A stretch of 64,000 nucleotides of DNA from Pseudobutyrivibrio ruminis CF1b (GTDB lineage: Bacteria; Bacillota; Clostridia; Lachnospirales; Lachnospiraceae). Both the position numbers and the translations under genes were made by a program. Positions 17,760 to 19,704 of the stretch are shown here, piece by piece; position 1 is the first letter of the stretch; each line of letters starts with the position of its first letter. Below the pieces are notes generated by a model. That model was not told where the DNA came from, did not search any database, and saw nothing but the letters and a program-made list of their open reading frames with translations. Location of the stretch: assembly GCF_000424005.1 (NCBI RefSeq), contig NZ_AUJB01000010.1, positions 124,001 through 188,000 on the forward strand, in the 5' to 3' direction.

Positions 17760-17775
17760 TATGATTTTGATTACA

Positions 17776-17805
17776 TGCCACCCAGAGATTCTGGGTGGCA
17801 TTTTT
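17776..17805 (+). terminator. Terminator of the flagellar rod operon
   Basis: TGCCACCCAG-AGATT-CTGGGTGGCA is a perfect 10-bp stem followed by TTTTT. It marks the left edge of the AT-rich island. Confidence 0.95.
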
Positions 17806-17865: not shown

Positions 17866-18166
17866 TTATCGCAAAGTAACGATGCTGTACTGCATTAGAG
17901 GTACTTTGCGATAAAATATCGGTCTTGATTCTATAAATATTATCGCAAACTAGTCACTTTACTGGTTTTATAGGAGCTCTTGTGATAGAAATCTATGTAT
18001 TTTCTTATAAAATCCTCATGAAAAGTTTGAAATATTGTAAATATCTATCGCGGAGTAGCTTGAAAGTAGTATAACCTCGTGGATTTGTGATATGGATAAG
18101 AATAAAATTAGACGCTGATTATCACATGAATGGCTATTATGGGTGAAATACTGTAAATTTGCGATA
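17866..18166. repeat. Left palindrome array: four 47-bp units
   Basis: The units lie at 17867-17913, 17941-17987, 18046-18092 and 18120-18166, each exactly 47 bp, with gaps of 27, 58 and 27 bp. Each starts with TATCGC (TATCAC in the fourth) and ends with GCGATA or GTGATA. The first has 13-bp perfect arms, TTATCGCAAAGTA / TACTTTGCGATAA. Interiors are otherwise unrelated. Where arms differ they mostly still pair as RNA through G-U: TATCGCAA with TTGTGATA, and TATCGCGGA with TTTGTGATA. No gene was found in 17,760-18,583 outside the leader of the nuclease gene. Confidence 0.9.
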
Positions 18167-18264
18167 GCAAACAACGATAATACACACAATTCAATCTAAA
18201 TATTGACTATAATTGCATTGGTGGGGGGTAATATATAACGCGAAACGAAAAACTCTTTTGGAAT

Positions 18265-18303
18265 GTAAAATGACAAAATAATTAATTCATTAATGTCATT
18301 ACA
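18265..18303. repeat. AT-rich palindrome upstream of the nuclease gene
   Basis: AATGACA (18269-18275) and TGTCATT (18294-18300) form an inverted repeat, extended by TGTA / TACA with a two-base bulge. It lies between the left array and the nuclease promoter and could be an operator or a weak terminator. Confidence 0.5.
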
Positions 18304-18454
18304 ATAATAGATTTAAAAAACAGATTATTTAAAGGCCGCCATTTTAAATTGATAGTCTTTTTGGCAGAAAAAAATAATGTCCTATATATTATGTGAAGCT
18401 AGAGTTATTAAAAGTTGGCGATAAGACGATTGGTTGCAATAATATAACTTTCTG

Positions 18455-18483
18455 TTGACCCAGAAAAAAATCTATGCTATCTT
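18455..18483 (+). promoter_or_regulatory. Likely promoter of the nuclease gene
   Basis: TTGACC (18455-18460), 17 bp, TATCTT (18478-18483). It would give a 5' leader of about 95 bases. A GGCGATAAG at 18417-18425 lies just upstream and is repeated exactly at 18573-18581 across the ribosome site; both contain the GCGATA half-site of the flanking arrays. Confidence 0.55.
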
Positions 18484-18583
18484 AATCTACGTCATTAATT
18501 TCTAAAATATTTCTTCAAGAAAATCAAATTTTTCCCATTGTAAAATTTACAAATTAAAACAAAATAACAGGAGGCGATAAGCT

Positions 18584-19366
18584 ATAGAAAAATATTTTGA
18601 AAACCAAATAGAGTCGATAAATCAAGAACTATCAGCAATAGATGACGAGATACAAAAACTTCCATCAGGGGAAATAAAGGTGTATCCCAATAATGATTCA
18701 TATAGATGGTATTTAGTTGATGGGGAGGCAAGACAGTATCTTCCGAGAAAAGAGAATAAGATAGCAGAAGACTTAGCATTAAAGAAATATTATCAATTGA
18801 AAAAGAATGCCTTGCTTGAAAAGCGAGAGAACATTATGAAAAGGCAGTGTGAATCATATGACGATAACGAAAAGCTACATAAGTTCTTAAATAATGAGGG
18901 CTATATACAATTGATTGGGCATTTGCTGAGTGGAGATAGCTTTGCAGAAAAATCTAAGTCTGTTTGGGCAAATGAAGAATATCGAAACAATCCAAAATAC
19001 CCGGAGCAATTGACAAATCTTGGCTCATCTGGAAATTATCTTAGATCAAAATCTGAAGTGTTCATAGATATGGCTCTGACTCAACATGGAGTTCCGTTTA
19101 GATATGAGTGCGAGCTGGTAATTGATAATCATATATTCTATCCGGATTTTACAATCTTCAATCCTGCTAATGGAGAAATCATCTATTGGGAGCATTTTGG
19201 AATGATGGATGATGAGGATTATGCTAGAAATGCATTCAGCAAATTAAAGCTATTTTATAATCATGGATTGATTCCGGGAGAGAATCTAATTATGACATTT
19301 GAAACTAAGTCTAAACCTTTCACATATTTTGATGCTGAGGCTACATTAAAGCAGTTAAAAATGTGA
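18584..19366 (+). CDS. PD-(D/E)XK-type nuclease-like protein, apparent AUA start
   Basis: I cannot name this family exactly. The N-terminus is a charged helix (IESINQELSAIDDEIQKLPS). A YRWYLVDGEARQYLPRKE beta segment follows, then a Lys/Glu-rich helix (about 65-90). The C-terminal half has a restriction-endonuclease-like core: helix Glu in RSKSEVFIDMAL (about 162-173), Asp in FYPDFTIFN (about 190-198) and Glu in IIYWEHFGMMDDEDY (about 204-218), where His stands where Lys often is. AGGAGG at 18569-18574 is 9 bases from ATA 18584, and an in-frame TAA at 18578 excludes earlier starts. The only other usable start seen near the N-terminus, GTG 18680, has no good ribosome site and removes the N-terminal helix. 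The gene is AT-rich compared with its neighbours and flanked by matched palindrome arrays. Confidence 0.7.
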   Translation: MEKYFENQIESINQELSAIDDEIQKLPSGEIKVYPNNDSYRWYLVDGEARQYLPRKENKIAEDLALKKYYQLKKNALLEKRENIMKRQCESYDDNEKLHKFLNNEGYIQLIGHLLSGDSFAEKSKSVWANEEYRNNPKYPEQLTNLGSSGNYLRSKSEVFIDMALTQHGVPFRYECELVIDNHIFYPDFTIFNPANGEIIYWEHFGMMDDEDYARNAFSKLKLFYNHGLIPGENLIMTFETKSKPFTYFDAEATLKQLKM

Positions 19367-19401
19367 CTTTAGTATATTGTCTTACTTTATCATTGTAGTT
19401 A

Positions 19402-19704
19402 CTATCGCAAAAACATGAACCATAGCTTGTTAGATAATTCTCTGCGATAGATAATGTCAACATCATAAATGTAATGCTATCGCAAACTATTGAAAACAAT
19501 GGATTTGCTTGAGGCCTTGTGATAAAAAACATCAAAAAATCTTTAAAATCTTAATTAAAAAGAGAGTTTTAAACAGATTTTTATCGCAAAGAAAACCTCA
19601 AGCTAGTATATTCTTGTTTCCTTGCGATAAGAGGACTTAAAAATTTCATTTCAAAATATCGCTGTATGCCGAGGTGTTCTTGGAAGTTCATTGCTTTGCG
19701 ATAA
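19402..19704. repeat. Right palindrome array: four 47-48-bp units
   Basis: The units lie at 19403-19449, 19478-19524, 19582-19629 and 19657-19703 (47, 47, 48 and 47 bp), with gaps of 28, 57 and 27 bp, mirroring the left array. Arms are TATCGCA/TGCGATA, TATCGCAA/TTGTGATA, TTATCGCAA-A-GAAA against TTTC-C-TTGCGATAA, and TATCGC/GCGATA. The second unit resembles the second left unit beyond the arm (both start TATCGCAAACTA). The far ends of the two arrays form an 11-bp inverted repeat, TTATCGCAAAG / CTTTGCGATAA. Nothing else is seen in 19,367-19,781. Confidence 0.9.

What the first reader, a model, noticed from the sequence alone, without database searches (positions are those of the whole stretch)
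17866..19704. Nuclease gene between two matched four-palindrome arrays: a possible new element
Eight bounded units of 47-48 bp flank one PD-(D/E)XK-type gene. Left units sit at 17867, 17941, 18046 and 18120 with gaps 27, 58, 27; right units sit at 19403, 19478, 19582 and 19657 with gaps 28, 57, 27. Both arrays are about 300 bp, and their outer ends form an 11-bp inverted repeat, TTATCGCAAAG. Arms, lengths and gaps are nearly the same on both sides, while interiors differ. That is too ordered for chance. The layout could be the two ends of a mobile element, as REP/RAYT or Tn7-type ends are, or a chromosomal site system served by the nuclease. The sequence does not say which.
Basis: partly seen in the sequence, partly recalled or inferred. 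Interest (0 to 1): 0.93.

Follow-up and report, generated by a model that had tools for sequence, protein, structure and literature searches.

The report
Nuclease gene with matched palindrome arrays
A rumen-type bacterium carries a family of likely DNA-cutting enzymes, each paired with its own orderly set of short mirrored DNA sites beside its gene and at other places between genes, which looks like an undescribed counterpart of the known REP/RAYT repeats run by an unrelated enzyme.

Summary
The eight units at 17867-19703 are exact. The gene between them (18584-19366, AUA start) belongs to a multicopy, Pfam-less family whose PD-(D/E)XK-like residues E159, E176, D189, E204 are invariant in 110 of 110 aligned members. 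Of 113 family loci, 71 have a regular inverted-arm array beside the gene; 0 of 452 shuffles do. Arms differ by paralogue, spacings are whole helical turns, and a core is shared by two differently armed families. Arrays also lie away from the gene, mainly in genomes holding a cognate gene. In four gene-less array pairs shared by species, arms changed at 6 of 306 bases, the DNA between at 110 of 853. The 1.8-kb element is absent from all 25 relatives with adjacent flgJ and recD2. Best reading: a REP/RAYT-like two-part system served by a PD-(D/E)XK nuclease, but not a RAYT: no Y1 transposase in the genome. Binding, cutting and movement in trans are inferred, not shown. Five literature searches found no description.

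The parts
17775..17801 (+). flgJ terminator hairpin, left neighbour of the element
   Evidence: nearly identical in G022
17866..18166 (.). left array, four units, core order > > < < by sign of score
17867..17913 (+). unit 1 (47 bp): arm 17867-17874, core, inverted arm 17906-17913
17941..17987 (+). unit 2 (47 bp)
   Evidence: core not significant on its own
18046..18092 (-). unit 3 (47 bp), left arm TATCGCGG imperfect, core reversed
18120..18166 (-). unit 4 (47 bp), left arm TATCACAT imperfect
   Evidence: core not significant
18569..18574 (+). Shine-Dalgarno AGGAGG
18584..19366 (+). nuclease gene, AUA start, 260 aa; invariant R155 S156 K157 E159 E176 D189 E204 H205 (numbered in the 261-residue frame from 18581)
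19403..19704 (.). right array, four units, core order > > < < by sign of score
19403..19449 (+). unit 5 (47 bp), right arm CTGCGATA imperfect
   Evidence: core not significant on its own
19478..19524 (+). unit 6 (47 bp)
19582..19629 (-). unit 7 (48 bp), core reversed
19657..19703 (-). unit 8 (47 bp), left arm TATCGCTG imperfect
   Evidence: core not significant on its own

Best explanation
A two-part, REP-like system: a single-gene PD-(D/E)XK-type nuclease plus cognate arrays of oriented palindromic units, beside the gene and in gaps between genes elsewhere. SHOWN by sequence: nuclease-like residues are invariant; arms are paralogue-specific and co-diverge with the protein; a core is shared between two families with different arms; spacings are whole helical turns; arms are constrained also at gene-less sites; arrays and genes are present in some species and absent at the same site in others. 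INFERRED: the variable N-terminal half binds the arms; two protomers on the inverted arms place their catalytic domains over the roughly 31-bp core; neighbouring units on one DNA face assemble into a complex; cleavage within or next to units lets arrays be copied, lost or moved into intergenic sites, the protein acting in trans; the AUA/AUU/AUC start keeps a dangerous enzyme scarce.
For: Family-wide arrays: 71 of 113 loci with 3 or more arm pairs at a fixed spacing, 0 of 452 shuffles; an exact-match version gave 40 of 118 with 3 or more, with no shuffle and none of 29 control loci (recD2 loci) above 1. Own genome: 9 homologues, each with a different best arm, 7 of 9 scoring 3 or more. Helical phasing: 225 spacings from 87 arrays, best period 10.5 bp, R 0.61; one modal spacing for each of 23 arm families, R 0.75, p about 2e-6. 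Shared core of TATC and CTGT units: PWM r 0.72, 0 of 2000 column permutations. Arm similarity follows protein similarity over 51 loci, 0 of 300 permutations. Dispersal: TATCGCAA units at 6 further places in G000; a second own-genome family, TACTACCT, has 18 units at 6 places, the gene at one. Units away from the gene, holders against others: TATC 8, 28, 7, 3, 4, 1 against 23 genomes with 0-6 (p 4e-4); CTGT 2, 20, 12, 11, 0 against 24 with 0-2 (p 2e-5) (counted). Site differences between species: flgJ-recD2; gltA flank, array in 1 of 28 loci; a G025 array faces a contiguous G018 site. Array copies in G021: three pairs of direct repeats of 227-264 bp at 95-97% identity.
Against: No transposition event, target duplication or intermediate was seen. 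The G018 site keeps 6 bp of an arm and may be a deletion scar. Of the six ends of the three G021 array copies, only two fall on an arm by sequence; a third does so next to a run of N, and three lie 34-109 bp beyond the last recognised unit, so the copies do not show cutting at arms. Gene-less array places number about 6-11 in the three genomes I counted (G000, G021, G025), against more than 100 REP copies per genome (PMC2817692 abstract). Arms at solo sites are constrained, which a purely selfish dead copy would not need. 42 of 113 loci scored below 3. G008, G014 and G005 carry arrays though no gene of the matching clade was in my list; G012 has the TATC gene but no clear array elsewhere; G015 has the CTGT-type gene but 0 hits with the N32 pattern. 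Structure prediction was off, so the binding model is untested.
Confidence: 0.47

Rival explanations
1. A host-serving chromosomal site system: the protein binds arrays to organise, recombine or regulate DNA, with nuclease activity used in repair or recombination; spread is slow and by ordinary recombination.
For: Arms at gene-less arrays shared by species are strongly conserved (6 of 306 changes against 110 of 853 between arms); 33 of 37 arrays lie outside ORFs of 100 aa or more; protein under purifying selection (dN 0.034, dS 0.378).
Against: Patchy, multicopy genes with many arm types; arrays and the gene absent at the same site in relatives; no shared neighbour function was noticed, though neighbours were not systematically annotated.
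Confidence: 0.27
2. A defence or suicide nuclease held in check by its own chromosomal arrays, released or redirected when foreign DNA enters.
For: The nuclease domain resembles that of PADLOC candidates PDC-S68 (46 of 46 members, best 6e-31) and HEAT_CxxC_PDDEXK (38 of 46); non-AUG start in 45 of 113 loci; several different specificities per genome.
Against: For the window protein the PDC-S68 match is limited to the C-terminal end of models about 1200-1270 long; I saw no operon partner, but did not test for defence islands.
Confidence: 0.12
3. A classical transposon whose two array-bearing ends are cut by the nuclease as transposase.
For: Window and G009 loci have arrays on both sides; the 1.8-kb element is absent from all 25 other adjacent flgJ-recD2 sites.
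Against: Both sides in only 14 of 71 array loci; no target duplication seen; no second long ORF in the element; in phages, plasmids and viral contigs only partial matches were found.
Confidence: 0.08
4. An RNA array (CRISPR-like or TIGR-like guides, recalled) or a structured RNA.
For: Short repeats with variable interiors next to a nuclease gene.
Against: Whole-turn spacing argues for duplex DNA; interiors drift by substitution between orthologues and share a core; no Rfam match reaches its gathering score.
Confidence: 0.03

Closest known systems
REP / REPIN sequences with RAYT (TnpA-REP) genes
   Same: Gene beside inverted palindromic repeats; gene-less copies scattered between genes; repeat families paired with specific proteins (PMC2817692 abstract and passages; PMC3116915 abstract).
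   Different: RAYTs are tyrosine enzymes related to IS200/IS605 (PMC2817692); this is a PD-(D/E)XK-type protein and PF01797 is not found in the genome. Units are arm-core-arm sites in helically phased arrays, fewer in number, with a core shared between two arm families.
T7 endonuclease I (PD-(D/E)XK junction resolvase; class recalled)
   Same: Profile match over about 40 positions round the E..PDF part, E 5e-4.
   Different: Only a short part matches; T7 endonuclease I is not known for cognate arrays and cuts by DNA structure (recalled).
PADLOC candidates PDC-S68 / HEAT_CxxC_PDDEXK
   Same: Shared nuclease domain.
   Different: PDC-S68 models are about 1200-1270 positions long and match only at their C-terminal end; no arrays are part of those models.
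FokI-type designer nucleases (zinc-finger nucleases, TALENs), recalled
   Same: The inferred geometry: two inverted binding sites with a fixed spacer beneath a paired nuclease.
   Different: Man-made, for targeting; geometry only, no kinship implied.

Membership tests
REP/RAYT | Y1 HUH tyrosine transposase (PF01797) | tested here: not met
   0 matches in G000; the control search rang in 5 of 14 named genomes; the window protein has no Pfam match of note
REP/RAYT | gene flanked by its cognate palindromic repeats | tested here: met
   an array beside the gene in 71 of 113 loci; but on both sides in only 14, whereas RAYT genes are described as always flanked by two REPs (PMC2817692 abstract)
REP/RAYT | gene-less repeats dispersed between genes | tested here: met
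   33 of 37 arrays outside ORFs of 100 aa or more, random placement 14%
REP/RAYT | GT(A/G)G head next to a GC-rich palindrome | tested here: inconclusive
   only read by eye in the window units, where arms are TATCGCAA with a 31-bp interior; no scan for heads was run
REP/RAYT | single-strand cleavage and transposition | not testable with these tools
   needs biochemistry
PD-(D/E)XK nuclease superfamily | conserved acidic core E..D..E with lysine | tested here: inconclusive
   E159, E176, D189, E204 in 110 of 110; no E-x-K, but H205 is invariant and K221 is K in 108 and R in 2 of 110; fold not predicted
Classical (DDE or Tn7-like) transposon | transposase gene and target duplication within or around the element | tested here: not met
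   no second ORF above 65 aa in the element; no duplication seen at flgJ-recD2, though flanks there are too diverged to fix the junction. Other transposases in the genome were not searched
Intrinsic terminator or known RNA | Rfam match at gathering score or terminator within the arrays | tested here: not met
   the only terminator-like site is that of flgJ, outside the arrays

The most novel reading that the evidence does not exclude
Lachnospiraceae carry a new class of genetic system in which a PD-(D/E)XK nuclease and its own helically phased arm-core-arm arrays form a unit that multiplies within chromosomes. Up to about ten systems with different arms coexist in one cell: an independently evolved counterpart of REPIN-RAYT, the variable domain giving specificity and the shared core being the cleavage site.
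Probability: 0.48. Interest if true: 0.92.

Novelty: categorically new. Interest (0 to 1): 0.85.

Why it matters
If right, it is a second, unrelated solution to the REP problem: how bacterial chromosomes come to hold families of intergenic palindromes tied to one enzyme. Many protein-arm pairs (at least 23 arm families by my clustering; 588 related stretches in one capped scan) would make a natural code of DNA recognition that can be read from sequence, and a set of nucleases with long two-arm sites. The constraint on arms at gene-less sites makes the question 'selfish or useful?' directly testable.

Tried and rejected
Chance, low complexity and terminators: rejected by shuffles, control loci and scans. 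RAYT elsewhere in the genome: not found. Phage or plasmid cargo, window protein as query: phages 3 records at under 37% over about half the query; plasmids 9 partial matches, 8 under genes named AAA ATPase or helicase and 1 in a record without annotation; viral contigs, alignment A1 as query, 2 partial hits. Known RNA: five sub-threshold Rfam matches, four of them microRNA models, taken as chance. tRNA at the one array place shared by G000, G022 and G008: none found. The similar spacings of G000 C6:143k and G022 C56, and of C10:16k and C19, first looked like orthology; flanks did not match, so 1 of 6 G000 gene-less places is shared with G022 at this reach (units with up to 2 mismatches, 1.5-kb flanks). 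A hit recurring in several genomes (G000 C2:32150 and likes) reads, by my own translation of the letters, as ARALAVNPKFIVCD of an ABC-transporter ATPase, so single hits in non-holder genomes are partly coding chance. L263's counterpart in G018 was too rearranged to use. Literature: five searches listed REP/RAYT papers and nothing on this family; subscription journals and most preprints are not in that library.

Rows dropped: spacing tests left out loci with near-palindromic arms and arrays with fewer than 4 arms, and used spacings of 40-130 bp (45-130 bp and families with a modal spacing seen at least twice); core PWMs used 91 and 57 units with at most 1 arm mismatch; the window core test was trained without G000, G022, G008 and G012; duplicates removed 127 to 118 to 113 loci; 3 of 113 gave no protein of 200 aa or more. 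The intergenic test left out L056 (a single unit at a gene end) and the L085 array; several of its 37 arrays are orthologues of each other, and some lie 2-3 kb from a family gene. The solo-array arm test used 4 collinear locus pairs of those matched; each locus had been found through at least one well-matching unit, a bias towards kept arms.

Full report
OBSERVATION. The strict pattern gives 6 hits in 64 kb, all here, and none in 100 shuffles. A motif-free scan flags no other place in the window, though it is not very sensitive. The gene between the arrays opens with AGGAGG and, 9 nt on, AUA at 18584; its frame has no ATG, GTG or TTG before codon 34. Across the family, 45 of 113 loci have only AUA, AUU or AUC as a Shine-Dalgarno-preceded in-frame start near the N-terminus, 41 have ATG/GTG/TTG, and 27 gave none under my lenient rule. 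No control set of ordinary genes was run for this.

THE ORTHOLOGOUS ELEMENT. G022 holds the same element at the same place. The coding region is 91.6% identical and the arms 112 of 128 bases, but the interiors only 137 of 249 and the gaps 148 of 224. Unit starts are 73, 105, 74 and 75, 105, 74 bp apart in G022 against 74, 105, 74 and 75, 104, 75 in the window. Coding change is mostly silent (dN 0.034, dS 0.378; 18 of 260 residues differ). So arms and distances are kept while most of the DNA between them drifts.

THE FAMILY. Of 61 genomes (G000 and 60 relatives) 32 have a match: 28 of the 29 genus members, 3 of 8 others of the family and 1 of 24 others of the order, with 9 copies in G000 and up to 11 elsewhere. 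There is no Pfam, PHROG or NCBIfam match of substance. The C-terminal half of the window protein matches the C-terminal end of PADLOC candidates PDC-S68, which 46 of 46 members hit; the family profile weakly matches T7 endonuclease I (E 5e-4). R155, S156, K157, E159, E176, D189, E204 and H205 are invariant in 110 of 110 aligned proteins. The C-terminal half is the conserved one (mean pairwise identity 0.48 against 0.24-0.32 in N-terminal and middle stretches).

ARRAYS ARE A FAMILY TRAIT. Testing 800 bp on each side of the gene, 71 of 113 distinct loci carry 3 or more inverted arm pairs at one fixed spacing; none of 452 shuffles does. A stricter exact test gave 40 of 118, with no shuffle or control locus above 1. 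The array is upstream in 29, downstream in 27, on both sides in 14 and weak in 1. Arms differ by paralogue: TATCGCAA, CTGTSACAG, TTTGWCAAA, TATCAATA, CGCCCAAA, GTATAACC, TGGCTGAC, TACTACCT, TTACGGGT, TACGTGAG, GGCATAAA, CGGGGTAG, TGGGTGTA and more. Over 51 loci with clear arrays, arm similarity follows protein similarity (0 of 300 permutations reach it). The correlation is highest with residues 20-90 (rho 0.34), then 1-60 and the nuclease half (0.30 each), then the middle (0.15), so assigning specificity to the N-terminal part is an inference with modest support.

WHOLE-TURN SPACING. Same-orientation arm spacings cluster near 41, 52, 62, 73, 83, 94 and 104 bp (41 comes mainly from the pseudo-palindromic CTGT arms). 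Over 225 spacings from 87 arrays the best period is 10.5 bp (R 0.61). Taking one modal spacing for each of 23 arm families, R is 0.75 and p about 2e-6. The window's spacings are 7, 10 and 7 turns. This is how sites on one face of duplex DNA look, and it argues against an RNA reading.

A COMMON CORE UNDER DIFFERENT ARMS. Oriented alignments of 91 TATCGCAA units and 57 CTGTSACAG units give cores ac.AACGAaa.tATGcgg.tT...aga..tt and ggg.AACGaAAATA.tGGGTTTGtaGgaattc (r 0.72, 0 of 2000 column permutations); the TTTGWCAAA units show the same by eye. Arm families outside this group were not tested for it. In the window the cores have decayed but together are above all of 2000 shuffles. Inference: arms are read by a variable part of the protein, the core by a conserved part, probably the catalytic one.

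ARRAYS AWAY FROM THE GENE. With the fixed-spacing pattern (at most 1 mismatch), 18 of 29 genus genomes have hits; the reversed-pattern control gave 2 hits in all. Leaving out units beside the gene, genomes with a TATCGCAA-type gene hold 8, 28, 7, 3, 4 and 1 forward units (the 1, in G012, is the coding chance match named under Tried and rejected); 23 others hold 0-6, median 0 (p 4e-4). Counting gene-side units too gives 12, 32, 11, 8, 7, 5 and p 7e-5. CTGTSACAG units occur in 5 of 29 genomes, 4 of which hold that gene type; G005 has 2 units without it and G015 the gene without hits (p 2e-5 with or without gene-side units). In G000 a second family, TACTACCT, has 18 exact units at 6 places, the gene at one of them, control 0; at gltA its array lies directly beside a TATCGCAA array. 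Of 37 arrays with 4 or more arms in 43 fetched stretches, 33 lie outside ORFs of 100 aa or more; random placement gives 14%. Three of the 43 stretches did contain a family gene or a similarity to it: L095, L275 and weakly L260.

ARE GENE-LESS ARRAYS KEPT? In four orthologous pairs of CTGT arrays, arms differ at 6 of 306 bases, the DNA between arms at 110 of 853 (Fisher 1.3e-9) and flanks, coding included, at 219 of 2438. Defining arms in the other genome of each pair gives 3 of 288 against 102 of 789. So the sites are maintained, by selection or by the protein, with the caveat that the loci were found through well-matching units.

GAIN AND LOSS. recD2 is found in 29 of 29 genomes. Besides G000 and G022, 25 have flgJ next to it and none of these holds the gene between them: 24 have gaps of 2-141 bp between match ends and one (G002) has 689 bp of other content; in G010 and G006 flgJ was not in the stretch. 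Gain in the G000/G022 line is the simpler reading. The gltA-side array is in 1 of 28 fetched loci; many of the others have different neighbours there. An array of about 0.38 kb in G025 faces a contiguous site in G018 whose left flank is 99% identical over 405 bp and right flank 71% over 414; G023 and G005 also lack it. G018 keeps CTGTCA, six bases of an arm, so a deletion in G018 is as possible as an insertion in G025. In G021, arrays recur as three pairs of 227-264-bp direct copies at 95-97% identity; only two of their six ends fall on an arm by sequence. Unit numbers differ between some orthologous arrays, with breaks near arms.

MECHANISM AND STANDING. Best reading: a REP-like partnership of a nuclease and the arrays it recognises, with arrays spreading or being maintained in trans. 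The anatomy, specificity, constraint and species differences are shown; binding, cutting and movement are inferred. The main rival is a host-serving site system, because of the arm constraint. Membership in REP/RAYT fails on the enzyme, so it may work like one without being one. Searches of the open-access library found no description; that is not proof of absence. From papers I saw the abstract and passages of PMC2817692, the abstract and outline of PMC3116915, and search listings for the rest.

Noticed in passing
L228, L229, L220 (HK-gltA gap): Where G000 has two arrays, G008, G022 and G013 hold other sequence in the same gap, in G008 with inverted TACG(G/T)AA-like arms by eye; the array score found nothing of 3 or more there. 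Possibly an intergenic hotspot.
   Followed up: partly
L056:2995-3041: One TATCGCAA unit overlaps the 3' end of a bioB-like ORF in G000; the region is shared at 93-95% identity with G026 and G009.
   Followed up: no
L079:3658-5407 and L080:4641-8288: In G021, near-identical direct array copies bracket a 320-aa membrane-protein-like ORF and, separately, a stretch with a DUF1016-like ORF (names by eye); the second copy in L080 abuts a run of N.
   Followed up: partly
window 18584 and 45 of 113 family loci: Recurrent AUA/AUU/AUC start codons after a Shine-Dalgarno site, suggesting translation is held low, as recalled for infC.
   Followed up: partly
L092, L104, L091: One gene-less array place is shared by G000, G022 and G008, next to a conserved block of about 90 bp, present twice in G000, that is not a tRNA.
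   Followed up: partly
L121 (G002 flgJ-recD2 gap): The only other relative with a long gap (689 bp) at this site; its content was not identified.
   Followed up: no
window 18167-18583: A 417-bp leader between the left array and the gene with no ORF of 60 aa or more on its own and no Rfam family at gathering score.
   Followed up: partly
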